A stretch of DNA of 64,000 nt, taken from Branchiostoma floridae. Lineage: Eukaryota; Chordata; Leptocardii; Amphioxiformes; Branchiostomatidae. The position numbers were made by a program, and so were the translations under genes. Below the pieces are notes generated by a model. That model saw nothing but the letters and a program-made list of their open reading frames with translations, made no database searches and was not told the origin of the DNA. The first letter of the stretch is position 1. Each line of letters begins with the position of its first letter. The DNA lies in contig NC_049987.1 in assembly GCF_000003815.2 (NCBI RefSeq), positions 8,945,100-9,009,099 of the forward strand, given 5' to 3'. Positions 10,242 to 62,780 of this stretch are shown piece by piece.

Positions 10242-11119
10242 TTAATTGACGACTTGTATATGAATATCGCAGCAGACCAGCCCATACTCGGTCTGGCCCT
10301 GACAGGTGTAACAGCCGTGGTTTTCCCTTGTGACGCTTTTGATGTGCAGGGAGTGGAACTCGTCACCATCACTTGTCTGTTCGTACAGGTCAGAGTTCGG
10401 CAACGGTGTGTCCTCGTACAGCCAACGTACGTCTCCGGCTGAGGGGGGAAAGTAACATTAGTGATTCTGACATCAATAACGTCAAAGTGTAACATTTGTC
10501 TAATTACATTCAATAATGATAGATCTACTCACAGATCATAGATTTGTACTAAATATATAAACCCCGGGCTAACCCCTCTGGTATTATTGTCCATCAAACT
10601 GTCCATAGTCATAGTCATGCAAAGTATCCAACTTCGTACTTCTTGGTCTCGATTGCTAAATCCAGGTAATTGAATTAAACGTTGATTCATCGATGACGTC
10701 ACATCGAACACCGGCACCGCAGCTTGCGAAAATCATACTTTGGGGAAGTAAAATGGGAAATATCTATTTAATAAATTTTACGTAATCACGATGAACTGTC
10801 ACTGTTTGCCTCTCATTAGTACGTTTTTGCAAGCCGCGTTGTCTGGTTCTGAACCGGCCGCCGTGTTCATTGTGACGTCATCTAAATGATAATTTAACTT
10901 TAATACAATTACCTGAGGTAGAAGTATGATCTTGGATGATATCTATTTCATTGGTACATAATTTAGTTTCTTTCTTTTTTTTTCCTTCGGTGAATACTCA
11001 TAGAATGTTCCTTACGAAGACGTGTAAGAAAGACAGGGACGACTTAAGTTCAATACTGTACCATCTCCGAAGATCTCAATGATGACAGGTTGACCTCGTT
11101 TGACCTGGATGACACTTCC
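10242..11119 (-). other. C1 C-terminal I-set Ig domain, cytosolic
   Basis: Encoded by the end of exon 11062-11321 (GSVIQVKRGQPVIIEI) plus terminal exon 10242-10438 (stop TAA at 10242-10244). Core: DVRWLYEDTPL (strand C Trp), HSLHIKSVTRENHGCYTCQG (strands E-F), then CCDIHIQVVN. The B-strand position is Ile/Glu instead of Cys, so the usual disulfide cannot form, as expected in the reducing cytosol. The last exon has no ATG and is easily missed. Confidence 0.85.
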
Positions 11120-14100
11120 TGACTGAGCTTGGAATGGATGAGGCTCTACGATTGGCTCGGGTTCACTGGCGACTTCCGTTTCCGGTAGAGTGGATTCGCT
11201 AGACCCGACCGCCATGATAGTGCCTGCAACACCTCCTGGTTCCGAGCCCATGTCCACGGCCACGTCCACTCCGACGTTGTCTGGGTCTGATGTGGTCAAG
11301 GTTGTATATTGCTTCTCCATTCTGAAAAATAAACAAACACAGTTTAGCAATTAGAAGAGTGGCACTTGACAGCGTAATGTTTATCTTCACATGGTCTAGT
11401 CTAACAAACTCCTGCACAGTATGCCCGGAATCTTTGCTGGATAGCTTTAAAGAACTCTTACAGATAGATGTGCGAGAGTTAGGTGTGACGGACCGTTCAG
11501 TGTAATGTAATCAGCTGCTGCCGCGTCTGCGAAGCTGGTGTGTTACGCGGAAGTGCGGTTGGTTATACCGATTATAACGTTATAGATACAGAATCTGATA
11601 CTGCTCTGTTAACTCTTTGTGTACACACAAGGTGACCATCCCCTCCAGCTCTGTTCTGCTACTTGCTACATGACATAATCGAACACCACGAGTGACAGTC
11701 GTCTTAATTTGTCCAGGTCATTGACCTTATATGTTTGGAGAAGGAGAGGAGGAAGAAACGGAGCAAAAAAAGTGTGTTCCCCTTCCGTGAAGGCTAAGAC
11801 ATTGGTACTAATATGTAATGGCCTTGGTCAAGATCCGATTTGACAGAAAGTCATTGTCATAATATATCTTAACAATCCATAACGTTCTACACTAAAATGC
11901 CAATGTCATAACTCACATGACAGTGGAGGACTTGACATTGGCGACGTTAGTGACATTGGTGACGTTGGTGACATTGGTGACGTTTGTCATGTTCGTAAAC
12001 GTGACGTCAGTGTAGTTCATGTGTGTTCCTGTCCCGCGATCCCCTGCGGCAGGGTTCATGATTCCTGGCTCCACAGCACGTCCCGTACTGAGGAGAGCCG
12101 AACTTTCTGTAACTCCAGCAGCGGACACGTCTGGAGAGACATCAAAACATAACTTATAAGAACCTGCTTCGAAGATCCTCTCCTCATTGGTTGAAAGTCC
12201 TATCTTTAGAGTTCAGTCAATAATCACTGGGCAGTCGAGGGTGAAAGGGAGGAGCTAAGAAGCTAGAGTTACACCCATGTTATTGAGATATGTCGCTAAT
12301 TAGAAAATAGTGTCTCACCGAAGCATAGTATCAACAGTAACCTATCAAAGACAAATTTACAGTCGTAATTCTATAACTTTATACGATTTACATTCACATA
12401 CTGTAAGTTCATTTAAGTTCGCGAGATTTTTAAGTTCGCGTATTTCGCTGAGACCTCTGCTTCGCGAAGTCATCTACTCGCGAACATGCATGTTCAATAT
12501 CGTCCCCCTCCTCACACCCTCCGTCCAAAAGATCCAGTCTCTGAAACTACATGTTTACTATGATAGCAACTTATATCAATGACAGGGCTCAATTGATAGT
12601 AGTAGTCTAGTACGGGAAATGTCTAGTAAGTACCACTTACCAACAGTGTCTTCGAACCTGATGTTCGGGATATCTGAGGAGCTGCTATTCACTCTGCTGA
12701 CTGTATAATATAGGGGTTATCATATCGGTTAGAATGGGCATGATAGACAGACATATCAGCACCCCCTGTGCTACAATTGATATTCAGACCATATTTAGAT
12801 GAAGACAGTGGTGTATGTGGGGAGGGGTGCGGTAGATTCATCTTGTTGCTAAATTATTTTTTATGTTTCTATAACACCTTAGTCTGGATGCCAGTCTGTT
12901 TCCAGGGCCTACTCAGGCCACCTGAGTTAGACCCTGATACGATAGGTATTGAGATGATAGATATTGAGATTGGTCTGGGGTCTGGAATCCAGGCTAAATC
13001 ATCATCCAAACTTCTTAACATTCACCGACAAAAAGAAAACAATTCTCCTTCTAACTTCACAAAACCCACACATAATAGAAAAGGTGGGATCCTTCGTCTT
13101 CCACTGTCTTTGAAAAAGGAGTCGAACCCAATAAGCTTTTACCTACAGTAAGCTTTTATTTGTTTTAGACTAGAGTAGACACATTTGATATTGTTTTTAT
13201 ACTTTGTCTGAATCTCTCATGTTACCTGCAATTAGCCCATGGGCAAAAATTTGCAATAAACTTTACTGTAAACTTAAACCCCGCACAGATACTACATGTA
13301 ATTAAAATCTAATCCGTGAGTAGATACCTTTCCCCTCCAGTCTGTCTGCCAGCCACGGGTGCTGCAGGCGGACGGCGTCACAGAAGTGGTAGAAGGTTGG
13401 GTCCGGACGGGCCGGCATCACGTCCAGAACCCGCCGGATGGCTTCCGGCCTCTCCAGCTTTCTGATCTCACCACCGGTGGACTTCGTGACGCACTGGTTT
13501 ACAATAGAAACATGTGAATTCTCAGGAAAAATGCTGTCTTAAAGTAATTTCAAGTACAAGTTTATCTTGAGCAAGTTGGCTTAACAGCCGGTTTCTAGTT
13601 TCTTTGTTAGTGTTAGATGGTGCTGGTTTCAATTCAATTCTTAATGATGTATTTTCATCCTTTTAATTAGAATAGCTCTCGTGCATTTCTGAAATTATTT
13701 TTTATGTTCAGATATAAGGGTAAGTGATAACTGAAATTCTAATATTTCTGCTTTCTCGATGCGTTGACTTCGTAGATTTGTGGTCTAAATGAATAAAAAG
13801 ATAAATCTTTACCCCTCTCAAGACCAGGTAGTCCACCACTGGATATGGGTTGACGTGCTCGACAATGGGTTCCCTGTACTTAAGTAACTGTTTCTTGTGC
13901 TCCACAGTCATTTCTGAAATGAATGGTGACTGTTAAAACTAGTCTATTACATCGTTCATTTCACACACTTTTGTCAGTATCCATGGTAGCTTTCGTGCAC
14001 GGATTAAAATTAGTCTCAAATCGAAAAGGATTTCGGCTGCTGTTTGACAAAACAACTTACAAAATCTTTATGAAAGCACAAATACCAATAAATTTCTACA

Positions 14101-17100
14101 GTTAAAGTGTTTTTCATGCGTAGTACTAATAACTAAACAAAACTTACCATCAACAACGTATCTCACGATCGGCCCCTAGAGAAAAAAAGTGAAATTATGT
14201 GGTTGACTCTTTAGTTTGGGAGAATAGAAACTGAGCAAATCTTACAAAACCTTACCCGATTCCGATCCAACTAAACTCTAACGTTACTTATGGTGATATG
14301 CCATTTGGGACTTCCTGACCGATATCCTTATCGTGTGATAAATCATTATGTACAGACAGTATTATGCCTTCTTTGATGTGTGATATGTTGATCACGACTT
14401 CTTGGCGTCAAACACTCACTGATAGCAAACACGTTTACCTAGTACATTCAGATGCAGATACACAAGTCTCTGTAATGTGAACCACGCACCTGCTTCCCGT
14501 CTTTCTTGACCCGTTTCCGTCTTCCACAGCAGCTGCAGCAGCAACAGCAGCAGCAGCACAGCAGGATCAGGAGAAACAGCAGGAGCAGCGCGAACAGGAA
14601 CCAGAAGAACCCCCACAGCCAGCTCATAGTGCCCATCGCTGCAAATAAACAACAGATACAGGATATACAAGCGGAAGGGCGTCTAAGGTATGTGCGGAAT
14701 GATACAAATGCTAGTTTTACATTGAAATCAGAGTGCGAAGGTTATGTTATATTTCCTGGCGATTTGTAAACTTTGTGCACGTACACATACACAACACGAT
14801 GCTATTATTGTTGCCACTTATTGAGTGCTTTACAACAACAATATGTATTGGCACGACAAAAGTACAGCGACGTTCACAAGGTCTTCTACATCTAGACTTA
14901 CATGGAGATACAAATATAGTAAGTAGATACAAATATAGTAACAGACTGATATATGAATATATCAACATGTTGATTTGACATATCGTTGTTCGTATCCAAA
15001 TGTGAGGGAGAAAAAAATCCTACCAATAATATTTGGCTGCGTTCTCCCCTGTGCTGTAGTCATGTAAGGCCCTGAGTACGGAACCGCCTTTGTGCTGACC
15101 TAGAGTCAAAAAGTAAATCATAAAACGTAAAGATCAGTGTTACGTTGGACATAAAACATGAGAATTACTGTTTAACCATAGTCATTATGTAAGATCTGTA
15201 ACATCAGATAGTCATAAACGGCATTAATAACATCGGTTAAGTTGTTAGATGCCAATTTCAGCACCAAGGACATGACCCAATAGCTGGTTTGAACGTGTCT
15301 ATACACAGTAAACATGCTCGTTTCTTTTACAGGGTTATCTCAGTAACTTTCTTTCAAAATCTGGCAATCAAGAACAAGACTAGATACGTAATGATTTTCT
15401 GACAAGAAAGGCGTAGGAAATGTTCAATTTTTTGACAGCATACTCTTGCATGTATTCCTGTTCTTGTGTACAATATTACAACTTTCAAAATAAGAAATCA
15501 GGAGCGAAATCTCAATAATCCTTCAAATAAATGTACCTGAAAGTTATAGAGTGTGTCTGGATACAGGTTTGTCACGATGCCGGTGACTTTTCCGTCCCTC
15601 ACCGTGTACGCAGGGTAGCCAGCCTGCGCCTGCGCAGAGCCCTCTGGGTACAGTTGTACGTACGAGTACCTGTTTTCAGCAACTTCTCTCTTTCTCCTAC
15701 CATCTTCCATTTCGTTCCAGTATCTGTAAATGGATAACAGGGGAGTGGAGCATACTTAGCATTTAACAACAAAACATGATTACCGTAGGAAATCATTTGC
15801 ATATTTCCGATGCACTTCTATTTCATTGGCAGATTCTCTTGAATTGCTTTCAAAAGAAATTGTTCTTTTGGGTTACATGGTTGATGTTCAAAATCCGGCG
15901 TAGAAAGACATATTTGTTCTTACATTCTATGTCACCACGGTACGATATAGAGGTAAGTAGATACTTCCCTTTTCTAAAAGTGCAACTGTATAGTCAGTAC
16001 TTAAATTGCATGATCGTGACTAAACATGTCTCACCTGACGTTGTAGTAATCCAGAACACCCCGGTAGACAGGGTCGTCCCACCGTAGCTGTGCCGAGTCG
16101 TTCGTAGTTCCCGTCACAGCCAAGTTTTGTACGCCGGGAGGAACTGTCAATCAAAAGGAATAAGTTTACTATGTTTGACAACTTGTCCAATATCACAGTA
16201 CTATGTGTGACAACTTGTCCAATATCACAGTGGAAGGGAAAATTAATGCTATTTTATCCATCACACATAAAGTGACAATCTTAGCACTTGTAGTAGGTCA
16301 CATTGAGATCCGCGAACAGTTTCTTTAGGTTGGTACGTTACTGAATAAAGGGACTCCTTTATCACAGCCCTTGTTTTATTTACTACCATGTTTCGGTGAC
16401 CACCTGCCACCTTCTTCAGGGCAATTTTGTACTGCAGCACTAGGTGTCGCTGCTTACAGTTAACAGATGCAGTCACACATTGTGAGATAACATACTTCCT
16501 GCAGAAGAATATACGGTCCATGATGCCTCCGGACCATCGCCGGCAGCGTTGAATGCCCGGATTTTGGCCTCGTATGGTTCGTATATCGCAGCGGGAGTTT
16601 CAGGCACACTCCTGGCGAAGAAGCTGGCTTGCGAGCCGTTTTTGAACTCTTGTTCTGTCCAGTCCCCTAAAGCCTTAGCAATGGAGCGGTACCGGAGCCT
16701 GTAGCCCACCGACGGAGCGTTCCAGTCTTTGGGATGTAATGGCTGAGGGGACAAGGTATACATGTACGTAGGAGAAAAAGTCCGTGTGGTGATTGAGCAA
16801 ACAATTCCTAGCAATCTTAGCTTTAAAGGGATAGATGACTGAGAGAGGTCGCATAAATAATTTGTTAAACCTTTAAGTTAGAAAGTATCACGATACTGAT
16901 GTCCCTGCTTTGTCGCCAAGAAATACGAAGGGTGGTTATCACAACGTACATATACAGCGCACTGTAAGAGACGACCGACTATGACTTACATCCCATCTCA
17001 TGATGGTATCCCCTTCAAGACCACCCCCTCCACCAAGGTTAGTCGGGGCGGCAGTCGGGGCTGGAAAAAGTGACGGTAATCAATGAAAATGTAGATTCAT

Positions 17101-20100
17101 TATACATAAAAGAAACGTCTGTAAAATGCTTAGAATTGTTTTGAAGGTATTTTTCTCAATACTTACGGCCTATTCCGGTACATGCTCTGTTCGACTCTGA
17201 ACTTGGTCTGCTGCTGCCGATGCTGTTGAAAGTCATGACCCGGAAGTTGTAGCAGGTCCAGGGTGAAAGGTTGGTCAGCTTTAAGAGCGAACGAGTGTCG
17301 GGGACTGGTGCTACATTGAACATAACGGAGAAAAACGGCGGATCATTGAAATGAATGAATTAAGACCTTTATTGTACATATATGATATACCAACTGGATT
17401 AAGTACAGGTCGCAACAAAATGGTAGTTGACAAATACATGGAATCTTTACAATGTCAATCAACACAAGGATCATATTCTACTGGTGTACTGGGTAAATAC
17501 GACTTCTCTCTTCTTTGTAATACTGAAAATGTAGGAACAGGGAAGCATTATGACAAGACTGTTGCAGAAATGTTGTTTTTTCTTTCATATTCACTTACAA
17601 AATGTTATGGGCTACAGTGTAGCAGAAATGCACAGACATACGGACTAATCAACTTAAACCGTACAAAGGATAATATAGAGAGAGCCCTTCTCACTGAGTG
17701 TTGTTCTTTCCTCAGCTTGACTTGTAGGTCTATTTCATACTCAACTTTTCTAACCGAGCATTGTATCACGTTGTTTAGCAAAGGGGCAAGGAAAACATAA
17801 TGTATTTAAGCACAATTAGTCTATATATGTACTATATGTCTATTTAGGTACATCTGAATACTTTATGAAAGGCTACCTGACTGAAGCTCAGAAATAGGTC
17901 CCCTCTGCACCTCTCTCCACACGGGCTCGTGGTTCGACTTGGCTTCGACGGAATACTCGTTAGGGGGCGCTCCGTTGTCGCTGGACGGGTGCCAGAGTAG
18001 GTCTCCTGTCGTGGCGTCCAGATTGGTCGCCTCGATACCAACAGGGGGGTGGTTTGGGGCTGAAAACACAGTCAAGTTTTCCAATGAACATAGAAAGAAC
18101 CTCCTTCTATGTGATCCTTCAGCGTATAAATCAATCCATATATTGTATAAGATTGGTCAACTGGACCAGGCTGTCAATGTGTAAACAAAAATTAAAAAAA
18201 AAGCAAACAAACCAAAATGCCGGAACGTCAACCCGAATATACAATTAAGACTGATGCATCTAAATCTGTTTTATTGTTATATCTATCTGAATAGAGGGTA
18301 TGCAACAACATTACCGCTAACTTTTATTTACAAGTGTGTTAGTTGTTTTTAGTAAATTTGTGGCATACCTATAACTTTCACTCTTGCGTCACCTTCCTCC
18401 TCGTCCACCGGTGTTTCCACTGAGCAGGTGAAGACGGCGTGTTGGGCGAGCACGACATTCTTAACCCGGAGACCACCACTCACGTCCTTACAAACAGGAC
18501 AAGGAAAACGTATCAATGGAATATCCATATTTCATGTCTTTAATATTCTCCTGCGAATATTGTAATATCGATTGAAATTCGCTATCATCATGATGTATTG
18601 TTTTATATCTAGAACGTTATATTTCTGCTTGCATGAAAACACAAAATACAAAAATTTAAGTGGATTGATATAAAACACAGTGAGAGGAGAGAGGAAGTAG
18701 CGCTCCTCCTTAAACCATTAACAAATACTAGTCACAATTTTAATGTAATAATTAAAATAATCATATATACATACATAAATAACAATTAGAATATTAAGAT
18801 AAGTAAATATAGCAGCTAAAGTAACACCTTTCTAGTATAATAACAAATCAAATATAGTGCATAACAAATCATGCATTACTATCAAATAATTAAAAACAGC
18901 AAATGTAGCAACTAAAGTAAATGTCATTGGACCTACCCGCTCATAGTGGTCACTCTCAAGGTCAAAGTCGATCTTCTGACCGTTCCTGAACCAGATGAAC
19001 TGGTGGTCCAGCCGCGGGTCAACGATGGCGTCACACGGTATGACCCCCGTGTCTCCGGTGTCCAGGGTCACATCTGTGGGGCCGCGCCCTGATGGCATGC
19101 GGGTCGGGTCTGAAACACACGGGGCGGTAAAATCTTCATTTCGTTTAAGTACATATCTTTACACAGACTGCAATGGGAAATCCATGAAAATGAAGCATAA
19201 TGTGTTGAGGCCTCTTTCCACTAGACGGCGATCGCTGGACCACCGTGCAGAAACCAGAATTGAATGGTTCATAATTGGAATATGATACAAGATGTGAAAG
19301 TATGATTTAAACAAAAAAACGTTAAAAAAATCATTTATCTGTGAGCAATCTGTCAACACGTTGGTCGCTTAGCGGTCGTGGCGTGGTCACAGTGTGTCTA
19401 TTGGACAGGGTAGGGTGTGAAATTTCCTACATGGCTACCTTTAGTTCTGCTATTTTTTAGAAAAAAAAGTTGGCTTTACTGTGATCTTGATGCATAACAA
19501 GGTTACCGTTATGACCATTGAAAAGTTACAACCTTATAACCTTTCATTTACCTGTGAGTGTTAATTTGCCATTCGATGTTGCACTACCCCAGCGGTTCGC
19601 CAGTGTGCACGAATAGTCTCCCTCGTCGTCGCTTGTGACGCCATCGATGACGAGATTCCCGTCGGGAGTGATCGTGTATCTGACGTCAGAAAACGAGAAA
19701 TCAACAAATATCTTATTGTCGTAGTAAAATAACGTGTGGCCTTGCATTATATTCACTAGTGGCATAAGCCGTATAGCCGCATCATTTGGTAAAGGTGAAT
19801 TTGGTCTTTTCTTAAGTTTCTGTTATGAAATTTTTGATGCAATATCTTCTTTATCTAACCCGACGCTGCGACGGCTGACAATTCCAATTAACGAATCTTT
19901 CCAAGGTTCTGTGTCTTTTGTTGTCTTCTACATCAAACTTTTTACGTTGTGGATCATATTCAAAGCATGAAACCAAGGGCCACACTAATTCAATTTTGGG
20001 ACGTCATGGATCGCCCTCTGGTAGCAAGGAGGCCTAAGCTACAAAAACGAAGAATACACACTTACTTGTATTCTCATGTTTGTTAGCTACACACTACGCT

Positions 20101-23100
20101 ATACGGTGCATGTTTCATCGACTATATGCTCCATAAACGTTTTAATCATCTGCCCCAACCCAATTCCACACTGACCTCCCCCCTGATCTGATCGGATTGC
20201 CATCCTTTGTCCACTGGAAGGTGGGGTCTGGGTCAGCCTCCCATCGCGTCGTCATGGTAACGGTAGACCCAGGCACTGAGTAGTACGTTCCGATAGGTGC
20301 CAGCCAAGCTGGAGTCACGTCTTTGCACGGAAAGAGAGGACCAGGTTGGAATCAGTCGCACTCCACAAAATGTTATTAAGACTTACTCCATTGTTTCCTC
20401 TGGACTACTAAAAACTTGTCTCCTCCCCTTTCTGCATATTGATTCATAGTTAGGATAAACCTGTTCTCCAACTAGATCTCTTTTGCATCTCAATTCACGA
20501 CTAGGATTCAATATCTCTCTCCAACAAGATTTCTCCAGTGTCACTGACGAAAGACACCGGATGGACCATCTCCAAAATCATATCCAGTTGCTTGAGTAAC
20601 AGCTTTTTGGCGTATCAGGCTACCTGGATGTCTAACCTTTATCGACGTAACGTGCTTAAAGTTTATAAGAAGGATGAGACTAGATAAAACCTTACTTCCA
20701 ATATGCAGTTTGGCTGATGACTGTGTTGATCCCCACTGGTTTTGGGCCACGCACTGGTAGCGACCGAGATCACTTGCCTGTAGGCAAATAGATGAAATTT
20801 GAGTGAAATCTAGCCCTGTGATATCTTTTGTCTGCTTTCTACGTTTACGGTTTCGAGTGTGACGCTGAAAATTCAAAGTGTTTCTGAATGATCAAAGTTA
20901 TGCCAAATGTTACGGTACTGTGTACCAAAATGTACGTACCCGAACATCATTGATAGTCAGCGTGTTCGTCCCTACAACTATCCGACCGCCAGTCTGCAAG
21001 GGGTCTTGCTGTTTGCCGTACCAAGTGTATGTAATGGGCTCAGACCCTGTGGCTTCACACGTCCAGCTTACACTGGAACCCTCAACAAGGTCCCGGTCTG
21101 GCAGCGGCTCAAGAGCTGGCGGTACTGTAAAGAAAATACAGAAAATGCAATATAGAGCATAGGGAAATATCATTAGGAGCGCCTTTGTCCAAGTAAAATA
21201 TCACCACTACCCCAACATGACAAGTTGTTCCTCCGTTGAGTTACAAGTTGTTCCTTTGGTGAAAAAATTTAATTACATTATCGATGTTAAAGGACGGCCA
21301 TCAAGAAGTAAATTGTGCTGCCAAAGGATCTCTCACAAGGGCTTAAAGCGAACAAAAAGGAAAAAAAATAAAGCAGATGAGAAAAAGTTTGCCTCCTAAA
21401 CAACGAATTCAAAGAAGTTCCTAACATTCAAGGTAACATCAGTGTTCTCACCCCTAACTATTATCTTCGCCTCGGTGACTGCGGTACCAAAACTGTTCTC
21501 TGCGGTACACCTGTAGATCCCAGAATCCTCCTCGGTCACATCAGGGAGAATGAAGATGTGGTTCCAGTTATGGAAACGAGATCGTCTTGGAATACCGACG
21601 TCGTTCCCAAAGTCATCTACACGCGACCAAAAGATGTTTGGTCGTGGGCTGGAAAAGATGAAGGGAGCAATTCTTTTTAAATACCGTACCAGACTAAATG
21701 TTCTGTAGCCGGAAGATGCTCAGTAAAAATGTGAAACTGCAACAAATATCACGTTCATTTGTATGAATTGTGACTTTAAACATCCGCAGTGCTATCTCGA
21801 AACTTACTATCCATTGGCAAAACAGTTCAGAGTCTCCGTCTGGCCTGAAAGTACATCTTCGTCTTCAGCGTTGAGGGCGATGGTCGCCGCTCTCTGTGTG
21901 GGATCTAAGACAAATAAAAAGAACATGCGCTAAGATTAAATATATCGAGATTCCAATCTCAGAAGAATCGCAGGAGAAATCGATGGAAAAAAATGGAAAA
22001 AGTTCAATCAATCAATTGCATCGTTTTTTTAATGCGTGGCGGCTACAGGCAGTTCTCGCCACGTTCTTCTCCGCTGGCTTTGGCGTAGACAGTCCTTACT
22101 CATTCACTCACTCACTCACTCACGGCCCATAACCACAGTGGTATACAGTCCAGTTCTTTTAAATGCTACGTTACACGCTTCTTACCGCCGCTGGACACTG
22201 TGAGTCTGGTGGGTTGGCTTGTCCGGATGGAGATGTCGGCGTCATCGGGCGCAGTGTCCAGCTCGTTCCGCACCAGACAGTAGTAGTCACCGCTGTCCGT
22301 CTCCGTGACGTAGGAGAAGTACAGGTCACCCGTCTTATCCGTGATGAAGACCCGGTGGGTGTTAACGATGATGTTGGAAGGGCTGTCTCTGTACCAGCTG
22401 AAGGAAAGTCCTACAATAGAAGATACAAGATCTGAGACTGGAATATAAGGTTAGAGAAGAATCGGACTATGGACATCAATCTAGTCTGGAAAGTTTTGCA
22501 ACTCTATAAGATTGCAGAGAAGAACGTTTGAAGACCTAACCTGGGTACGAATCTGGCGGGTTACACGGGATAAAGGCGGATGCCCCGGCCTGTAGGGTAA
22601 TCCCACTTCTGGACGCAGTGTCAAAGGGATCGACAACTGTGGAAATGAAAAGAAAGGGTTATATACTAGGCACTTTCTTCGTTGAATAGAGGTAGCTTAC
22701 ATGCTGTACCATAAATTGCAAAGGATGCCACCCGGCATAGCTTAGAACGAGCCAGACCAGGCTTCCAATTCTCCAAGTATCCCACAACACCATTTCCGCC
22801 TTACATCCTGGCAGGTTGCCACTCTGCCGTACTGGCATAACTTCAGACAAACATACAAACAAACGCACCAACTTATTACCATATCTCCGTTTTACGGATG
22901 TTAAAAGACGAAATAGACGGAATGTTACAAGAATACCTACAGGCAAAAGACAGGCGGGCAGTGCTACTGACTTCCACTCCTACATCATTCCTCGCCAGAC
23001 ACTGGTACTCTCCCTCGTCATCACTCTTGGTGGGACTGTTGATGATGAGGTCACCGCCAGTGATGACGTACTTTCCGTTTCCGGCGGAGATGTCCACCAG

Positions 23101-49530: not shown

Positions 49531-49835
49531 CAGATATGCGTCTAATCTATTCCAGGGCATTCGACTTCCTCTCGATTCTCGGTAATTGCATAAATTTAGC
49601 TAGCTGTATGGTTGGTTAGAGTTGGTTTATCAAAAGCTGTCAGGAATATAAATTGGCGAAAAGAGCTTACTAATGCACCAATTAATGTCGACAATCATCC
49701 AACTGCCTTCCTGTGTATCATTGACAGATTTGCTTAAACTGCACAATTAGAACCATCTTACGGTGCTTACGGTAACATACACGTACATATAGACTATTTG
49801 TAGACTGGATCATGATCGTCATATGCCTTAAAAAA

Positions 49836-50636: not shown

Positions 50637-50662
50637 ATTCGTTCGTTCGTTCGTTCGTTCAT
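50637..50662. repeat. (TTCG)n simple repeat
   Basis: Six TTCG units in a row. Confidence 0.95.
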
Positions 50663-51140
50663 TCCCATGTATTAACGTGTACATAAAACAGAATGATATA
50701 TATGCTAGGTATAAATGTCAAAACCCAATAAAGCTGGCCCGCAACTCAAGATGCCAGGCGCATCTTGTCGTTCTGTTCACATTACACTGAAAAGTACTCG
50801 GGTAGGTAAGGTTTTGTGTTCTATCATGTCAGTGAGCATCACAGTAGGTTAGATTTTATCAAATATTCGGCCTGGTAAGTAGGTAATACTGTACACGCTG
50901 TGCTGCATACTGTACATGTGTTATTTCTTTATCCGGATATAACGTTACATGTATAAAGCAATCTAAACGAAGCTAGGCACGACAAAGGTACGTCTCACAA
51001 AGCTACAAGTTTCCTTAATGGAAATCTCAAACTGTCATATTCTGTACCTTATGAGTTATACGATTATGCTGTTTTATATCTGCATGAGATGCACACAATC
51101 CTGAACGAAATATCCAGACAGCGTATAGTAGGGGCATTTT

Positions 51141-52839: not shown

Positions 52840-55800
52840 CTGAGGAGAGAAGGGTTGGGTGTGGCTGATAAGTCAGGAATTATGCATGGCAAATGTGCTG
52901 CAATAGACCTCCATGAATTGTTCCCAATAATCATATCTGCTGTCTTGGATTTAAACACATAGACTAGATGGAAGTTATTCAATGTAAAGGGTGTTGTGTC
53001 ATAGTGAAATGTTCTTACCTCCAATCTTGGCAGCTAGGTCTGGATCCTGCTTTTCCAGGCACATTAGGTAGTGGTAGAAGGCAGGGTCCGGACGGTCTTT
53101 CAACATTTCAATCACAGTGTTGTTCGTCTCTTCCTTGCTCGAAAGGGTCATGAGATCTTCTTCTTCCATTGGGTTGAAGTACTGCGAACAACAAATCCTC
53201 AGCTTATCATCAAGAACCAATCAGTGACTACAGCTCTTTTAATGATAGAAGTGAAGATGTGACATGGTACCATTTGTAAGGCACCATTGTGCACTAATTA
53301 GGAGCAATAATGAATAAAAATTCCACCTTATTCTCCTTCATGTGGCTGATGACGGGATGAGGGTCGACAGTTGCAGCCAGGGCTTCCTGGTGGGTCTGGA
53401 GGATAGACCTGTGCTCGTCTGTCATTTCTTCTTCTGTTGTCATAAATGGAATTAGGAATACATAAGTTACCGAATATTCGTGTAATTATAATATGTCATT
53501 AACTAACAGTGTTTTGCATGTAAATCAGGGTCGTTTATTAGTGTCTTGTTCTACAATGGGAAGATACCAAAAACAACAGTGCGTTTTTAAATAGTATCTT
53601 ACGCTATTCTTACAAACATACCCGCCTCCTCCAGTAGATCAGACAGCCAAGGGTGTTCAGGCCGGAATCCATCACAGAAACGGTCAAAGGCGAAATCAGG
53701 GCGGTAGGGCAGGATGTCCAGGAGCCTCTCATTGGCCAGATCAGGATCTTCAATCTGTTCGATCTGACCTGCTATGGTCTGGGGTAGGGCCTAGATTGAC
53801 ATTTTTTTAAATCTTGATTAGTACAGAATAAAGGTATTAAGGCATTAATTTTCACCCACACTGTACAGAAAGCTACTAGTAGTCTAGATCTACCCGTAAT
53901 CATGAATGAAGACAAATGTCCTCAGAGAAAGTGTTGCTATATAGTTGACAAATGAACCTGTTAATCATTACACCAAAGACGTGACCAATTCTACTTTTAG
54001 CTATTTCCAGGAATGCAATCTTGTTGTACCCACATCACTTGTGACGAGATGATCCGTAACAGGGTTGGGACTGACGTATCGGATGATGGTGTCCCGGAAC
54101 TGCTTAAGGAGCCCCTTGTGGTAGTCTGTCATGACTAAAAAGAAAAACTGCCTTAAAGTTTATGAAGTTAAAGTGAGCCTGACATATCTAAACCAATACA
54201 AGATAAATATCCAAATAAAATGCAGTCTCTACAACTGGATGGATAAAAGCGGAGAATCACTTTCGACTGTTCCAGTGACATTCACCACTAATCTTCAGCG
54301 TCACTAGAATGAACTGGCAGAAATATTGAATACATCATCAATAAAAATAGAATAAAAGTAAAAGTAAAAAAATAAAAGTACATCAATACCAATACAAGTA
54401 CTCGAAACGCCTGGAAGTGATTCTCCGTTTTTTCTACCCAGCTGTAGAGATTGAATTTTATTTGAATACTGTTTACCTGGATGTGTAACTTTCAGAAAAG
54501 AATTGTATGATAAGTATGTGAAAAACAGATATACAAGAAAATCTCAAACGCATAATAAGTTACAAACAAGGGTGCCACACACAAATGTCATTGTTAACTA
54601 AACTCACCATCTACTTCATAATTCCTGGCTTTCCAGTTTCTCTTGGAGAGGAGGAATAGCTCATTTTTCTGTAAGTCAACATAAGTAAAAATTAACAAAC
54701 TGATCAGTAAATTCAGTTGCTTCTAAAACCATATAGGTAACACATATTCCACAAACGTTTAAGCTAAAAGAAGAAGACATACATACTTGCACCAAACTTA
54801 GGACATGTCCTATTTACGTAGTTACCATTGATGTGTCCAAATGCCAGTCCTTAATTGAAACACAAGTTATTGTAAATTTTGCCTCTGAGGAGAATTCCTG
54901 ATTCTTATCATCACTGCTTAATGCTTGTAGAAGGGGTTCATATAGACTTACGGGTTTGTCCCGCTGCCGCAAGTTGCACCAAAGACAGCAACAACAGCAC
55001 AGGGTGAGCAGCAGGACTATCAGCAGTGTAACCAGTAACCAGAACAGCATAGGTATCCACCAGGTGCCCCTCACTGTTAAGGAATAATGCAGCACATATA
55101 CCGGGTCTTAGTCTATATCTGTATCTGTATAGCCGGTATGATAGTAAGTGTAAGTATCAGTCATTCAGTTATATCAACGCTCAACGACTATATACAAATT
55201 TACCATCACATATATAAGCTATCATGTACAGACAGGGCAGCGCCTGGATTTGAAATAGATGTAAACAGATAACCTATCATATACCTTGTGAATCGTACTT
55301 AGTTTACACCGAATGTAACAAACTTCAACTTACATCCTTGGAGCCATGGGTTTCCGGTTCTCAATGTGATAGCACGGGTGATGTTGCTGTATTCTCCAAA
55401 ATATGGATGGCTGTTGGCTCGCACCTGACAAAAGGATCCTCATTGTGTAAGAACATCAAAGGCAACCGTAGCCACAACCACTCCCAGCATAGCAATTATG
55501 ACATGTTGTTAAGACAGTATGCGCGCTTAAGTAAGTAGATGGCCCATTGCTTGATCATTGCAACATAATAGATAAGTAGTCTCGAACCTGAAAGTTGTAG
55601 AGCGTGCTCGGCTGAAGTCCACGAAGTATGTAAGTCTCCTTGCCAGCAGGCCCTGATAGCTTGGTCAGACCGTCGTCATAGAGACGGGCGTACTGGAACC
55701 CTGTTTCATCCTCCTCCTCTTGCTCTGGGATGTATCGAAGCTAGGAGGAAGATGCACACACTCATTGCATTTTTAATCGATCCTCTCTTTGCTTCTTGTG

Positions 55801-58800
55801 AGCATATCGCTTGATGTCTGGTAATCCAACGGTATCATTAACGTCAATATGATTCACTACAACTGATTTTACTATTCGGAATCATGTCAAAACTGTTACT
55901 TACCCAGGTATCCCACCAATAGCTGACCGCACGTTTAAATATTGTTTGCTAGATAAAGGAAAAACAAATACTGTCAGTCTGTAGTTGCCTTATTATTTAC
56001 CTTGTATGCTATCATAGTATGGACGCTTTGCAACCGGTATACCCACAATGACTCGGGGCATCCTAGATCCTAGAACGTACATATTATTTCCCAGACATAG
56101 TTTGCTTCGCTATGTTATTCTTACTTTATGTAATATATCATATTGATTTTAGGCATGATCTTCTTCTTCTTCATGTTCTCACATTGTGTTGTTCACTAGG
56201 CAAAGTAACGTTAGAAAATATCCATGCATTTGTTTTAACTCACATTACGCCTAGCTGCCCTTGGGCGATCCTCCTCACGCCAGTACCGGACACCCCAGAA
56301 CGGGATCGGGCCGTTGAAGTTCGGGATCTTGTCCCATTGCATCGTCACACTGTTGTTCGTTTGTTTTATGATTTCCAAGTTCCTTGGATAATCTGGCACT
56401 GGAAGAAAGTTACAACATTTAACTGAATCTTGAGGTACTTTCCGTGAGAGAGTTGTATACATTTAAAACATTCACAGAGAGTAGATATTTAAGTACATGT
56501 AGGCTAAATCGGCGACGTCCTTTGATTGATGACGTGCAACTAATTATCATTAAAAGCTGAATGTCTGAGGCTATGGTTCCTACTCACCTCTGAAGAAAGA
56601 GACGTCAGGATATCGGACAGCTTGACGCAAACAACCAGTATAGGCATCTCTTGAGACCTGTTTGATTACGTATAAGCACTGTATCTGTCACAGTTAGTAG
56701 CATGCCTCATTCTATGAAAAGATGCAGCAAATTCACTCACGGCCTGAAGATGAGTAGGCTATCCACGTGGCCTCTGGTCCAACACTGTAGTTATTGTACG
56801 CCGCGATCTTACACTCGTATGGAACGTTGACGGGTGCTGGAGGCTGGGTGTGCGCGTAGGCTGCTGCCTCAGGGTTGTCGATGTAGACCACCCGGTACTT
56901 GTCCCCGGTACCCTGTCGGCGGTACCGTACACGGTATCCAACCGTGTAATCTCCCCAGTCTGACTCCTCAAGCGGCTACAGGAAAAAAAAAGATTATGTC
57001 TTTGCATATTAAAACACTGTACTACATGTACCTAATCTTCCAACATTGACAAGTCAATATTATATAAAATGCTACGTACCTCCCAGCTCATCAGCACATC
57101 TCCTGCCATACCATTGCCGTAACCAAGCTTCCTTGGAGCTCGAGGTGGGGCTGTAATAAACGATTTAAAACACCGACTTCAATAACCTCACCATATAACA
57201 AAAACAGTATATAACGTATCAAGAAGTGAATGTATGAAAGAATTAGGTACATGCTTAATCTGAGGCCCATCATACGCAGAATAAAATGTACATCGATTTC
57301 GGGGTTATCCCTACCTCCTGGCAAGGTCCTGTTTTTCTCAGTCGGCCAGCTCGGCTCACCCATGCCGTATGTATTCAAACACATAACCCGGAAGCTGTAC
57401 TCGGTGTACGGCTTCAGGTTGTTCAAGTTGAGAAGCTTGGCTCCCCCTCGGCTACCTAGGTATAAATTAAATCGACTAAATGTAATCAACTCATGCTCAA
57501 GCGGGAAATGTGGTAAGTACACAGCACACGGAAAATAATGCTTTTCCGTTCGGTCATGAAACCCGATACTTTGATAAACATACTCACTTCTGAGGGCACT
57601 AGGTGAACCCCTCCAAACCTGGGTCCACAGCCTGTCAGTGAAGAAAATGTCATCGAACTCTGTCTGCGCCTCCACCACGTACTCCTTACAGCTGTCTCCA
57701 TTGGTGTTGGCTTGAGTGAAGCGGAGAGTAGCGGTGTTGGACCCCACGTTCTCAAACTTCACTCCAACTGGTGCCTCGCTCACACCTTCGGATACAAACA
57801 TTTTGGCTATGGTTGTAAGTGTGAACATCCTGACACATTCTTTTGTTTCAGATTATAGACATATAGATCTACTTGTATAGATGAGGTTGTGGAGGGATGA
57901 ACACTATCATTTTGCCGTATGTGTTTGATAACAAAACACAAAGATGCCTTACCCTTGATCCGCACCCTGCCAGTTGCAGTCTGTTCGTCAGCAGTTGTGG
58001 CCAGTGCGCATGTGTACACTCCATCGTGCATCATGACATTTGCGTTCTTGATAATCAGTTCTCCTTTAGGCCCCTGCAAAATGGACTCAATAAAACCACA
58101 AACATTTTCCTCCAACAGTGACAGATTTTAAAGGCAAGCTGCATACCTCCAAATTTTCGATGTCTTACAGCACATCTTGTTCACGGAGAGTGACCTAGCC
58201 TCGCTTGACCTAGTCTCGTGCTTTCTCGCGAGACTAGGTCACTCTCCGTGAAAAAGATGTGCTGTAAGACATCGAAAATTTGGAGGCATGTACCAAGACT
58301 TTGAAAACTGCCACTGTTGGAGGAAATTTGTAGTAACTGTATTCATACGTGACTGATGAACCTGTTCAGCGAACCATGAACATCATTTTGCTGAACAAAT
58401 AATTGAATTTTTTTATTTGAGCAAGCCTTAATTTGAGTGAGTATATTAATGAGAAGCAACTGACCTGCACATCCATATATGGAATATATGTTTTGGAAAA
58501 AATATCACTTACCCTCTTGTAGTTGAAGGATTCTTTCACAAAGTCAATCTTTCTTCCGTCCACAAACCAAGTGTTGACACTTTCCAGCAGGGAGTCTATC
58601 TGTCCTTCACACGGGATGATGGTAGTACCTCCTTGTTCCATGTTGACATCTGTTGGTCCAGGACCTCGTATGATACGCGATTGTTCTGAATGAAAAAAAA
58701 AAAACGTATGATTTAGCATTCTGGAGTAACAAATATACAATGAAACTTGTTTGAAACTCCTGTTATTGGCAGAGTGATGTGTTATCTTGCTGTCACGTAT

Positions 58801-61800
58801 AGACAAACCTAACTGTGCTGGAAGTGTTAATGGATGTACACAACAGGCTATGTTTTTCCCATATCTTGAAGATTTAACAGAGAATTTGTAACATACTTGC
58901 AACGTATAGTATCCCGGCTGTATCCTTGCTGTCAAGGACGTTTTGAATTCTGAAGCTGTAACTCCCTGCGTCGTCTGGAGTCAGATTCTTGATGATAAGA
59001 TATCCCTGTCTTGTCACGTCATATCTGTTTAAAATAATAACAAACAACAATAGCAGATAACAGTAACAATATCATGAAACGAATCAACATTGGCATAACG
59101 TTTCAGCATACAAATTGCCTAACCTGCTTGATATCTAACATTACCATTCTTCTATTTGAAACAACTATCATCAAAGTCAATTAGAAAGAAATCGGAATCT
59201 CGACAAATCGACAAAAAGTTACTGTTCATAACAATTATAACGTCACTGTACAGAGGGCGATCTTACCTCGGACTGGTAGTCTCAACAACTCCCTCTGGTG
59301 TCCTAGTTGCGATCACTTCCCCCTGTTTGATCCACTCCATAGTAGGAACCGGAAGTCCCGCGAACCTTACAGTCATGGTGATGGTGGATCCTTCCATCCC
59401 GTTCTGTTGGCTGATCGGGATTATGATATTCGGTCCTGTAGAATATTGCAATAATACGGACGCCTAAAAGACAAATTCTCTGCATTCCCGGTTCACACAA
59501 TGATACCTTGCTACATTAAGAGCAAATGATTAAATGCAATATGAGTATTTTATGATGTTGGTAGGTTGGAAAGAAAGGTGATTATCTTACACTTAAGTGC
59601 TTGTGTCAGTACATATATCAAAATTAATATTGTCAGATATTAACGCCCCTGACATCTTCACGAAGATATAGCGATGATGAAATACAAGCAAAGCTATGCA
59701 ATCGTCAGTGCAGTGAATGTAATGCCTATAAATAAACATACCTTTAGCTAGTAACTTAACTTCGGCACTACCCGCTCCTTGTTGGTTTGAGACGATACAT
59801 CGGTAACTGCAAGTACATGAATGTCGTCGTTATCGTATCAAATCATCAATATTCATGCTTATTCATTACTACCGACAATGCAAAGTGTTCAGGAATTTAT
59901 AGCTTTTCAACGATGTCAAGCTAAGACTAGCCAAGGCAAAGACAAGCTTACCCTCCTCTATCTCCCAGATCCATGTTCTTGACTGTAAGTTTGTCAGTGG
60001 ATACGACGTATTTGATGTTGTCCGTCACTATCTTGTCTCTTTTAAAGTACCAACTGTACACGAGAGGTTCACTTCCCGTTGCTTCACATGACATAGTCAC
60101 ACTGCCTCCGAAGACGAGTGCCTTGCTGGCTCTCGGTACTTTAGGGCTCGGTACAGCTGTGGGGTACAAAGGTATACAACTTAATTATGCAATTCTATTC
60201 AGTTTGTTGGCTGCATACGGATAGCCAATAGATGCGCTAAACATGGTATTACATGTATTTAATACATTTGATCATGCCGATGATGATGAATTGTTCTTTG
60301 ATGTGTGAATGGTGTGAATGCCTAAATGAATTACAGCAAATATCCAGTCTGTATTGTCAAACGACATGTACCTATTCGGTGACATTGGAAAAGAGTTAAT
60401 TCATCAAGGTTTGGCATTAAGTGTTAGAATACTATATATAGTGACAGTGGCTTGTATATTTATATGATTACTGATACATGTCAATGATTTGACCCGCATC
60501 TAGTCTTAAACTTGAACCCTAACATGCGGTTTCACTAACATGTTGACCTAATGTTGCTTGCAGTACTTACATCTAACTTCGATTTGGGCCTCGTGTGAGA
60601 CGGATCCCTTGCGGTTGCTGGCGGTACACTGGAAGATTCCACCGTCAGCTGCGCTCATCAACGGGATGATGAGAGCGTGGGAGTGATAGTTGAACCGGGC
60701 TTTGGACGGAAATGCTATCTCTACACCGCCTTCTCTGGCTGGCCTGTCCAGTCGTTTCCACTGGATGTTAGATTCAGGGCTGAAATCAAGGCAGAATAGG
60801 TATTAATACTGTGACGGGTCTGTGTCAGGAACTGTAGTCCCCATTAGAGCCGGGTTAGGGTTAGGGTTGGGGTTAGGGTTAGGGTTGGGGTTGGGGTTGG
60901 GGTTGGGGTTGGGGTTGGGGTTAGGGTTAGGGTTAGGGTTAGGGCTAGGGTTAGGGTTAGGGCCAGGGTTAGGGCTAGGGTTAGGGTTAGGGCCAGGGTT
61001 AGGGATAGGGTTAGGGTTAGGGATAGGGTTGGGGTTAGGGTTAGGGATAGGGATAGGGATAGGGATAGGGATAGGAATAGGGTCAGGGTCAGGGTCAAGG
61101 TCAGGGTCAGGGTGCGTCCCTCCTCCAATCCACATATCTCATGAGAAGTAAAGATAAAGTCACTTCCACATTTATAGATGATGCCTAAACGTAGAACTAA
61201 AGTTAATTGTGGAGACATAGATGAACATCTTGGGAGGTGGGTCGGGTCTCATGAGGAAGAGTCACGACGCAAACGGTTGAGTCTACAGCAGTAGCATTGG
61301 GGGCTGCCTCGTGGCATATACATTTAACAGAGTTATTGCGTACTCACTATGCGTCGTCGAAACACTCCAGTTCTGCACTCAGGTACCCCTCGATGACGGT
61401 GGTGTCCTGCGGAGCAAGCATGATCACTGGTTCTCTGTCCGATATAGCTAGTTTGAGAAAGGAGAAAAGAACGGTATTTTAGGCTGATGAAACAGAGAAA
61501 AGATTGATTTTGCCAGTTTGCTGTACTTCTGGCTGGTATGTTGTCACATTGGGCACTGACAAGGTGACCTATTGATGTTTGGAGGTTAAGTGTCAAAGGG
61601 TAACATTTGGTTCCATTTCATCACTTCTGATGGGGGCTCAGGTACAATATGTCGATCATAACAAGAACACAACCATATTAACTATACGTAATTGACAATT
61701 GTTAGTCGCCTTTGAATTTCAGTAATCAAACGGGCACTTGTAACATTTTACATTATAGAGGAGAAAGCAGCTGCTGACGGTGAAATTCATGAATTTAAGT

Positions 61801-62780
61801 CTTACGTGGGTTGAGATCACGATTTACGATCACGGTGATGATAGGGCTGGATCTGTTCTGCAAATCCCCGGCAAAGTCTGTTTCCTGCTGATTTTGGACG
61901 AAGCACCTAAAATGACACAGCAACAAAGGTTCAAACAAAGCATACACACATGAGTCTCAACTGACAGCAAGACCATATTGGTTTACTATGTGAATGTGAT
62001 CTTCTATTTAACCTATGTTGTTTCTACCCGTTAATATGAAGTCTTTAGATTTCAGACGATAAAGAATGTATATATAGCTATTTATTGTTGTATTAATCTA
62101 GGAGGCAAAATTCAATTGTTAACAATACAAGGTTCAAACCTGTAGTTTCCGGCGTCATTGACTACGGCATATTTAAAATACAGGTCTCCGTTTTTATGGG
62201 AGATGTATCTCCGTTCGTTCGGAATGATCCGGTTGGCGACATGGCCCTTGTACCAGCCGTAGTAAAGGGCTATCAAAGGAAAAAAAATATACGTTGTTAC
62301 AAAATTGGGATTGTCACATCATCATCATCATGACACTACACAATGAAGTGTGGTTTATTCGTGTCCCTGCAGCTCAACTGGTAGCAGGCTCACAGTTGAG
62401 CTTCTGGTTTAAATGAAATCAATCGGTAACTAGGAGGGCCCGATTTAACCCTTGGTCAGGGCATGTCGGTTGGGGCTTTACCCATTCAGTCGGAAGGGAT
62501 ATAAAGTGACCCCGTGTTTGAGGAGGTGCCTCGAGCTCGTTAAAGGAGAATGAATAGTAAATATACCGAAACAGTAATACTGACGAAGTAAGGATACTGC
62601 CCTATGTGCTACGAGGCACTATAAGGGTCTTCTGAACGAACACACGATCGAGTAAAATGCACCAGTACAAATTTAATTGCTCACCAGGAAAGCCGTCAGG
62701 AGCTCCACATTCCACTTTGAACCCTCTTCCTTCAGTTACTGTCACCTGAGAGCGGGGCGATTTGTCAAACTCTCCAACGT
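51141..62780 (-). CDS. Contactin-like Ig/FN3 transmembrane receptor with two cytoplasmic CARDs (C3), 5' end missing
   Basis: 29 coding exons in the window, 3980 nt, about 1325 residues from Ig2 to the stop (TAG 51141-51143). The phase at the left-most codon (two bases) matches the T-ending Ig1 exon of C1 and C2, so signal peptide and Ig1 lie beyond 64000 or in the unread upstream part; none was found in 62781-64000. Order: Ig2-Ig6, three FN3, transmembrane helix with CCCCC, CARD1, CARD2, acidic and repeat-bearing linker, C-terminal I-set Ig. Contactin-like signatures include ELECFDDAY in Ig3. An extra 45-nt exon (55904-55948) sits in FN3-3. This is the most upstream copy of the array and shares CARD number with C2. 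Confidence 0.88.
53019..53433 (-). other. C3 CARD2 (two exons)
   Basis: Exons 53327-53433 and 53019-53181. Pattern: MTDEHRSILQTHQEALAATV, PHPVISHMKENK, NNTVIEMLKDRPDPAFYHYL, MCLEKQDPDLAAKIGG. Less canonical than CARD1 but same layout and same phase-0 intron. Confidence 0.77.
53622..54134 (-). other. C3 CARD1 (two exons)
   Basis: Exons 54034-54134 and 53622-53790. Clearest CARD of the set: YHKGLLKQFRDTIIRYVSPN, PVTDHLVTSD, NERLLDILPYRPDFAFDRFC, HPWLSDLLEEA. Confidence 0.83.
54208..54472. repeat. Long inverted-repeat (MITE-like) element
   Basis: AAATAAAATGCAGTCTCTAC with GCGGAGAATCACT on the left pairs with AAGTGATTCTCCG and GTAGAGATTGAATTTTATTT on the right. In the C3 intron before CARD1. 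Confidence 0.75.
54952..55073 (-). other. C3 transmembrane exon
   Basis: WWIPMLFWLLVTLLIVLLLT, then LCCCCCLWCN and LRQRDKP. Five consecutive Cys resemble the C1 polycysteine tract. A 61-nt exon (54608-54668, KNELFLLSKRNWKARNYEVD) leads to CARD1. Confidence 0.92.
55334..57785 (-). other. C3 FN3 domain exons (three FN3 domains)
   Basis: Exons: 57588-57785 and 57315-57455 (FN3-1); 57080-57150 and 56741-56975 (FN3-2); 56244-56398, 55904-55948, 55588-55740 and 55334-55424 (FN3-3 and membrane-proximal stretch). Hallmarks: YSFRVMCLNTYG, VLMSWE, YECKIAAYNNYS, VTMQWDKIP, FWGVRYW, LYNFQ. The 45-nt exon encodes QTIFKRAVSYWWDTW, phase 0 on both sides. Confidence 0.86.
58146..58286. repeat. Near-perfect 53-bp hairpin element
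   Basis: Left arm 58146-58198 (CCTCCAAATTTTCGATGTCT...GAGTGACCTAG) pairs with right arm 58234-58286 almost without mismatch. An inner CCTAGTCTCG/CGAGACTAGG palindrome fills the loop. In the C3 intron within Ig6. A recent MITE or a strongly folding RNA. Confidence 0.85.
60851..61112 (+). repeat. Interstitial telomere-like (TTAGGG)n array
   Basis: About 260 bp of hexamers: TTAGGG and TTGGGG dominate, then CTAGGG, CCAGGG, ATAGGG and TCAGGG variants toward the end. In the C3 intron between the two Ig3 exons. Long Leu-Thr, Pro-Asn and Gly-Leu reading frames on both strands are artefacts. Confidence 0.97.
62355..62640 (+). repeat. SINE-like repeat, family A, most complete copy
   Basis: Starts with a tRNA-like A box (GCAGCTCAACTGGTAGCAG), then GGGCATGTCGGTTGGGGC, GTGTTTGAGGAGGTGCCTCG and a tail CCCTATGTGCTACGAGGCAC. 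In the C3 Ig2 intron. Confidence 0.7.

What the first reader, a model, noticed from the sequence alone, without database searches (positions are those of the whole stretch)
10242..62780. Contactin-like adhesion receptors fused to cytoplasmic CARD domains: an apparently undescribed receptor class, in three tandem copies
The sequence shows, in each copy, signal peptide (C1, C2), six Ig (five seen in C3), three FN3, one transmembrane helix, one or two CARD-like domains, a linker and a final Ig. Reading frames close exactly (1322 and 1365 codons before the stop), so the fusion is not an artefact of merging neighbouring genes. From family knowledge, contactins are GPI-anchored with four FN3 and no cytosolic part, and CARDs belong to cytosolic or mitochondrial signalling proteins. 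I know of no described protein with this order. Inference: cell contact or ligand capture by the ectodomain could nucleate CARD assembly, giving contact-dependent death or innate immune signalling.
Basis: partly seen in the sequence, partly recalled or inferred. Interest (0 to 1): 0.97.

Follow-up and report, generated by a model that had tools for sequence, protein, structure and literature searches.

The report
Amphioxus contactin receptors with cytoplasmic CARDs
Lancelets carry a family of cell-adhesion receptors (contactins) whose inner tail holds caspase-recruitment domains, the parts that switch on cell death and inflammation in other animals, so touching a neighbour may be wired straight into that machinery.

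Summary
The window is Branchiostoma floridae. Its minus strand holds three tandem genes (A 23978-10242, B 46430-31258, C 62780-51141, 5' end beyond the window), each encoding a contactin-type ectodomain (Ig, three FN3), one transmembrane helix, one (A) or two (B, C) CARDs and a last, cytosolic Ig. B and C match public proteins named only 'contactin-2-like'; A has an 85%-identical B. lanceolatum ortholog. At least six such loci (A-F) were found in Branchiostoma; F has five CARDs. Ectodomain and tail trees are compatible with one old fusion before the duplications. The copy C CARD pair is predicted at pLDDT 91, best matching APAF1, RIG-I and MDA5 CARDs; the ectodomain is closest to contactin-2 (E 9e-91). 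CARDs are two-exon units bounded by phase-1 introns, fitting exon shuffling. Unexpectedly, the cytosolic Ig is the best-conserved domain between the old lineages A, B and C/D (not between C and D). Proposed mechanism (inferred): contact-driven clustering seeds CARD assembly. Slow evolution argues against a fast immune arms race. My searches found no paper on this class; a sponge gene with Ig and CARD is the nearest precedent.

The parts
10242..23978 (-). Copy A, whole gene, 27 exons, 1327 aa: signal peptide, 6 Ig, 3 FN3, TM, 1 CARD, linker, cytosolic Ig
   Evidence: gene model, 26 of 26 GT-AG introns; 85% identical to B. lanceolatum P0009; Pfam
23936..23978 (-). Copy A signal-peptide exon
   Evidence: ATG, hydrophobic run and strong donor; P0009 begins at the corresponding residue
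18369..23249 (-). Copy A Ig1-Ig6 exons
   Evidence: Pfam I-set, 7 stretches incl. the C-terminal one
15024..18059 (-). Copy A FN3-1 to FN3-3 exons
   Evidence: Pfam fn3, 3 stretches
14490..14638 (-). Copy A transmembrane helix exon followed by Cys-rich and Arg/Lys-rich juxtamembrane
   Evidence: hydropathy peak 3.23
13328..13913 (-). Copy A CARD, two exons 101+166 nt, phases 1-0-1
10242..11321 (-). Copy A linker end and C-terminal cytosolic Ig
   Evidence: Ig 95% identical to the B. lanceolatum ortholog
31258..46430 (-). Copy B, whole gene, 30 exons, 1365 aa (public protein P0001 1352 aa)
   Evidence: 29 of 29 GT-AG introns; 1346 of 1352 residues of P0001 read from the window
46373..46430 (-). 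Copy B signal-peptide exon
   Evidence: same N-terminus in P0001
38401..46033 (-). Copy B Ig1-Ig6 exons
35131..38124 (-). Copy B FN3-1 to FN3-3 exons
34841..34965 (-). Copy B transmembrane helix exon
   Evidence: hydropathy peak 3.61
33854..34390 (-). Copy B CARD1, two exons 101+169 nt, phases 1-0-1; six predicted helices with kinked H1
32928..33352 (-). Copy B CARD2, two exons 107+130 nt, phases 1-0-1; five helices predicted, helix 6 not seen
31258..32510 (-). Copy B linker and C-terminal cytosolic Ig
51141..62780 (-). Copy C, from Ig2 to the stop (signal peptide and Ig1 not in the window)
   Evidence: 27 of 27 GT-AG introns; 1325 of 1464 residues of P0041 read from the window, from 62778 down
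57953..62780 (-). Copy C Ig2-Ig6 exons
55334..57806 (-). Copy C FN3-1 to FN3-3 exons
54952..55073 (-). Copy C transmembrane helix exon
   Evidence: hydropathy peak 3.06
53622..54134 (-). Copy C CARD1, two exons 101+169 nt, phases 1-0-1
53019..53433 (-). Copy C CARD2, two exons 107+163 nt, phases 1-0-1
51965..52839 (-). Copy C linker exons
51141..51773 (-). Copy C C-terminal cytosolic Ig exons

Best explanation
These are cell-surface receptors made by joining a contactin ectodomain to a CARD-containing tail. SHOWN from sequence and prediction: signal peptide (A, B), contactin-type Ig domains plus three FN3, one TM helix, basic juxtamembrane, one, two or (at another locus) five CARDs, and a C-terminal Ig without its canonical disulfide; at least six loci, each seen in two or more Branchiostoma species, with trees compatible with one ancestral fusion. 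INFERRED: contactin-style homophilic or heterophilic contact clusters the receptor in the membrane; clustering brings the tail CARDs together so that they seed assembly with soluble CARD proteins (CARD caspases or CRADD/BCL10-type adaptors), giving caspase or NF-kB-type signalling at the contact site; CARD number (1, 2 or 5) sets how readily a cluster fires; the conserved cytosolic Ig docks a partner shared by the copies. The origin was probably insertion of a phase 1-1 CARD module into a contactin gene, with loss of the fourth FN3 and of the GPI signal.
Against: No expression, localisation or binding data. Soluble CARD partners were not identified; the one amphioxus caspase-1/2 studied in PMC3196919 has DED and DD where vertebrate caspase-2 has a CARD (passages). 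Copy B CARD2 was modelled without helix 6. Copy A's CARD was missed by Pfam in the full-length protein and in its ortholog. Between the close paralogs C and D the last Ig (76%) and CARD1 (82%) are less conserved than the FN3 domains (92-97%), so the tail is not everywhere the most constrained part. Divergence between species is slow, unlike arms-race immune receptors. CARDs can also inhibit. Sequence kinship to RAIDD/APAF1 is weak and does not fix the partner.
Confidence: 0.5

Rival explanations
1. Dependence-type or guidance receptor: a neural or epithelial adhesion receptor whose CARDs trigger death when ligand is missing (the way UNC5/DCC are said to work, recalled), rather than on contact.
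For: Ectodomain is contactin-type, with Neurofascin, DSCAM, Robo and DCC further down the same list; slow divergence between species suits a developmental role.
Against: No caspase-cleavage or expression data; no UNC5 domains (TSP1, ZU5, DD) listed by Pfam.
Confidence: 0.2
2. Membrane-tethered CARD sink: the tail binds soluble CARD proteins and holds them back, as CARD-only inhibitors do, so contact suppresses death or inflammation.
For: CARDs without an enzymatic or nucleotide-binding domain in the Pfam scans; the inhibitors ICEBERG and ARC are among the structural matches, though all CARDs share this fold.
Against: A five-CARD paralog fits a platform as well as a sink; nothing here separates the two.
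Confidence: 0.15
3. CARDs serve adhesion mechanics only: tail self-assembly clusters the receptor in cis and the cytosolic Ig links it to the cytoskeleton (titin/myotilin/palladin-like), without death or immune output.
For: The C-terminal Ig is nearest titin by sequence, and titin, telokin and myotilin Igs by fold; it is the best conserved domain between the old lineages A, B and D.
Against: CARD1 is conserved like a binding module (89-97% between species) and its nearest natural relatives are apoptotic CARDs. I-set Igs resemble titin in general, so the Ig match says little about a partner.
Confidence: 0.12
4. Gene-prediction artefact: an adhesion gene merged with a neighbouring CARD gene.
For: Public proteins are predictions; no transcript was seen here.
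Against: TM exon to first CARD exon spans 0.45-0.82 kb with the same exon order and phases in 3 of 3 copies; same fusion at six loci and in three species plus hybrids; compatible trees.
Confidence: 0.02

Closest known systems
Contactins (CNTN1-6, TAG-1/axonin-1)
   Same: Collinear Ig1-Ig6 ectodomain; PDB contactin-2 is the best match
   Different: Known contactins have four FN3 and a GPI anchor (recalled; sea urchin P0012 has 4 fn3 in Pfam and a hydrophobic C-terminus); here three FN3, a TM helix and a CARD/Ig tail
Ig-TIR receptors (IL-1R family recalled; sponge Ig-TIR)
   Same: Ig ectodomain with an intracellular immune-signalling domain (sponge Ig-TIR: PMC6208332 passages)
   Different: TIR instead of CARD; no contactin ectodomain; no cytosolic Ig (recalled)
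UNC5 netrin receptors (recalled)
   Same: Ig-containing guidance receptor with a cytoplasmic death-fold domain
   Different: Death domain with ZU5, and TSP1 repeats; no CARD
Amphioxus TNFR-caspase hybrid (PMC2575513 passages)
   Same: A lancelet surface receptor shortcut to the death machinery; domain shuffling
   Different: TNFR ectodomain and a caspase, not contactin and CARD
Sponge Dysidea avara gene 'containing Ig domains and a CARD domain' (PMC6208332, Table 5)
   Same: Ig plus CARD in one gene, up at 1 h after microbial signals; a CRADD-like gene is in the same table
   Different: No order of domains, TM or FN3 given in the text seen; kinship unknown
RIG-I/MDA5 tandem CARDs and APAF1/RAIDD CARDs
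   Same: Fold and, weakly, sequence
   Different: Cytosolic proteins (recalled); not membrane receptors

Membership tests
Contactin | Six N-terminal Ig domains collinear with contactin Ig1-6 | tested here: met
   One stretch 8-574 of the copy A ortholog's Ig1-6 on contactin-2, E 8.6e-91; I-set 7 stretches incl. the C-terminal one in A and B
Contactin | Four FN3 domains | tested here: not met
   3 fn3 stretches in A and B at E<=1, 2 in P0047, P0041 and P0009 at E<=0.01, 4 in sea urchin P0012; in the alignment the TM follows the third FN3
Contactin | GPI anchor, no cytoplasmic part | tested here: not met
   TM helix followed by basic residues and a tail of 340-456 residues in 11 of 11 sequences examined
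CARD (death-fold) proteins | PF00619 above the curated cut-off | tested here: met
   B 33.6 and C tail 39.2 bits vs 23.9; P0041 34.3, P0047 144.6 bits with five stretches. Full-length A and its ortholog P0009 not hit; the A segment alone matches at E<=1
CARD (death-fold) proteins | Six-helix bundle with kinked helix 1 | tested here: met
   Copy C CARD1 and CARD2, pLDDT 91; copy B CARD1. Copy B CARD2 shows five helices only. Copy A was not folded
CARD (death-fold) proteins | Homotypic binding to another CARD | not testable with these tools
   needs biochemistry
Ig-TIR / IL-1R type receptor | Cytoplasmic TIR domain | tested here: not met
   No TIR listed in Pfam scans
UNC5 | TSP1, ZU5 and death domain | tested here: not met
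   None listed in Pfam scans
RIG-I-like receptors | Helicase domain with tandem CARDs | tested here: not met
   Tandem CARD fold only; no helicase listed in Pfam scans

The most novel reading that the evidence does not exclude
A cell-contact receptor class in which the adhesion ectodomain itself seeds a CARD signalling platform at the plasma membrane, with CARD number (1, 2 or 5) graded across at least six paralogs, several of them old, and a shared cytosolic Ig docking domain: a surface counterpart of the apoptosome or inflammasome, found in cephalochordates and not returned from any other animal by the three protein searches made here.
Probability: 0.35. Interest if true: 0.92.

Novelty: new variant of a known kind. 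Interest (0 to 1): 0.76.

Why it matters
CARDs are known from cytosolic or mitochondrial proteins (recalled); a conserved surface adhesion receptor with one to five CARDs would mean that cell contact can feed directly into caspase or NF-kB type assembly in a chordate. It is testable: the paralogs form a natural series of CARD number on one scaffold. It also gives a phase-mapped example of how exon shuffling may have joined adhesion and death-signalling modules, and raises an open question, since the part best conserved between the old lineages A, B and C/D is a cytosolic Ig with no known partner.

Tried and rejected
Artefact of merged genes: rejected on exon order and phase in three copies, six loci and three species. 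Non-CARD helical region: rejected on Pfam and structure. Purely recent expansion: only C, D and E are close to each other; A, B and F stand on long branches. Chance Ig/FN3 matches: excluded by E-values.

Led nowhere: the genome search 'own' was tried five times with the same request and the machine was busy each time, so loci outside the window come only from protein searches and are a lower bound. The Genome Research 2008 amphioxus immune-repertoire paper (title recalled) is not held. The profile search with eight proteins scored only the 7998 candidates sharing most words and did not return P0003-P0008, so it is a weak test of absence; 2 of its 34 rows list CARD, both Branchiostoma; its best contactin from elsewhere was Diadema P0012, without CARD. 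The structure search with the whole copy B tail was filled by Ig matches, so the copy C CARD pair was folded alone. The trees lack vertebrate and tunicate contactins, so whether the CARD contactins are one clade within chordate contactins was not tested; treekit warned of long branches meeting and of odd make-up for locus F in the ectodomain tree. Two scripts stopped with errors and were run again in mended form. tblastn of the public proteins on the window skipped many exons; one search replaced it.

Papers: seen as passages: PMC2575513, PMC3196919, PMC6208332, PMC4284660 (also its abstract); supplements were not seen; the others only as search listings.

Full report
WHAT IS THERE. Similarity among minus-strand reading frames marked three copies. 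Gene models built from splice signals, codon use and conservation between the copies give A 23978-10242 (27 exons, 1327 aa), B 46430-31258 (30 exons, 1365 aa) and C 62780-51141 (28 exons in the window). All introns of the final models are GT-AG (26 of 26, 29 of 29, 27 of 27) and each model has one stop, at its end. Model C formally starts at an in-frame ATG at 62814, but the public protein P0041 reads from 62778 downwards, and its residues 1-133 (signal peptide and Ig1) are not in the window.

INDEPENDENT CONFIRMATION. Searching with the copy B tail found 8 proteins at E<=1 among 2094 candidates, 8 of 8 from Branchiostoma or a Branchiostoma hybrid. P0001 (B. floridae 'contactin-2-like') reads from the window in exact 8-mers for 1346 of 1352 residues and P0041 for 1325 of 1464, the remainder being single junction residues and the N-terminus of P0041; copy A is 85% identical to B. 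lanceolatum P0009. The window is therefore B. floridae, and the fusion is already predicted in public annotation, under names that hide the tail.

DOMAINS. Pfam finds 7 I-set and 3 fn3 stretches in A and in B, and CARD in B (3.9e-8) and the C tail (7.4e-10), but not in full-length A or in its ortholog P0009. Segments scanned singly hit CARD in 8 of 8 for CARD1 (A included) and 8 of 8 for CARD2 at E<=1. A search with the tail of paralog P0006 returned 16 proteins at E<=10 among 2749 candidates (the query among them), 16 of 16 from Branchiostoma or its hybrids. Among them P0047 ('contactin-3-like') has five CARD stretches at E 9.4e-43; P0042 and P0043 carry a Ser/Pro/Lys-rich stretch between the first two CARDs.

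ECTODOMAIN. Ig1-6 of the copy A ortholog match contactin-2 at 8.6e-91 in one collinear stretch, ahead of neurofascin at 2.6e-52. Against sea urchin contactin P0012, the lancelet proteins share Ig1-6 and FN3-1 to FN3-3 and lack the fourth FN3.

TOPOLOGY. One strong hydrophobic helix follows FN3-3; basic residues follow it, with a Cys run in A and the C-type copies. The C-terminal Ig has no B-strand Cys in 13 of 13 aligned sequences. Ig1, 2, 3 and 6 keep two Cys in 4 of 4 paralogs examined, Ig4 in 3 of 4 and Ig5 in 0 of 4. So the missing pair fits a cytosolic Ig but is not proof by itself. N-glycosylation sequons do not help: the copy A tail has seven, more than its ectodomain (four), and tails of six of the other ten sequences have one to three.

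CONSERVATION. Over five between-species pairs CARD1 is 89-97% and the last Ig 87-95% identical, the ectodomain domains 76-96%. In the three comparisons between A, B and D, the last Ig (55-64%) exceeds all six ectodomain Igs (31-49%) and CARD1 is 37-55%; A, B and C give 58-63% for the last Ig. Against this, between the close paralogs C and D the last Ig is 76% and CARD1 82%, below the FN3 domains (92-97%) and most Igs (79-86%); and with the five-CARD paralog F the last Ig falls to 37-43% and CARD1 to 28-52%. The tail is under constraint, and its Ig stands out between the old lineages A, B and C/D only.

HISTORY. The ectodomain tree, rooted on sea urchin contactin, gives F, then A, then B, then C/D/E; the CARD1+Ig tree (midpoint root) is compatible and separates F and A from B+C/D/E (98/96), but it sets C/D/E apart from B with only 65/82 and A with 88/81. 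Species pairs fall together at A, B and F, and within C; the two D proteins are not united in the ectodomain tree. One fusion before these duplications is the simplest reading. Branches between lineages are roughly tenfold longer than those between species; B. belcheri and B. floridae are dated to 120+/-10 Myr (PMC4284660, passages), so the fusion should be much older than that, a rough inference since rates differ. In 3 of 3 window copies each CARD is a two-exon unit entered and left in phase 1 with a phase-0 intron inside (101+166 or 169 nt; 107+130 or 163 nt). Lancelet exon shuffling favours 1-1 phased exons (PMC4284660, passages), which suggests how the CARDs arrived and multiplied.

MECHANISM. 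Best reading: contact clusters the ectodomain and the tail CARDs then seed assembly with soluble CARD proteins. Shown: architecture, predicted fold, conservation, compatible trees. Inferred: topology in cells, clustering, partners, output. Amphioxus caspase prodomains can be DD, DED or CARD and a receptor-to-caspase shortcut gene was validated by cDNA (PMC2575513, passages), which makes direct recruitment plausible; on the other side, the amphioxus caspase-1/2 studied in PMC3196919 has DED and DD in place of a CARD (passages). Against an arms-race immune role stands the slow divergence between species. A dependence receptor, a CARD sink and a purely mechanical role remain open.

NOVELTY. Ten paper searches listed no paper on contactin-CARD receptors. 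Word searches inside three amphioxus papers gave no sign of the combination: 'immunoglobulin' 0 times in PMC2575513 and PMC3196919, 'CARD' and 'contactin' 0 times in PMC4284660 (main texts only). The nearest precedent is a sponge gene listed as 'containing Ig domains and a CARD domain', up after microbial signals, in a table that also holds a CRADD-like gene (PMC6208332, Table 5); its architecture is not given in the text seen. Most subscription papers are not held, so absence in print is not proven. I rate it a new variant of a known kind (Ig receptor with an immune-signalling tail), with an unusual ectodomain, a graded CARD number and a cytosolic Ig.

Noticed in passing
4793-5599 and 6190-6957, + strand: BTB-BACK reading frame (BTB 3.6e-27, BACK 3.6e-17) followed by Kelch repeats (1.5e-24), with further Kelch frames at 1025-1468, 7054-7482 and 7685-7939: one or more Kelch-like (KLHL) genes beside the array.
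   Followed up: partly
P0047, P0042-P0048 (not in the window): A further locus, 'contactin-3-like', has five tandem CARDs, and some isoforms carry a Ser/Pro/Lys-rich insert between CARD1 and CARD2.
   Followed up: partly
60806-61248, - strand: Long simple repeat that reads as Pro/Asn or Leu/Thr dipeptides inside an intron of copy C.
   Followed up: no
11917-12130, - strand: Copy A linker exon carries a tandem T-N-V repeat giving several glycosylation sequons in a part predicted to be cytosolic; a similar repeat is in the B. lanceolatum ortholog.
   Followed up: no
23538-23780 (-) and 37640-37813 (+): Reading frames 81% identical over 31 aa on opposite strands in introns of copies A and B, probably a dispersed repeat.
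   Followed up: no
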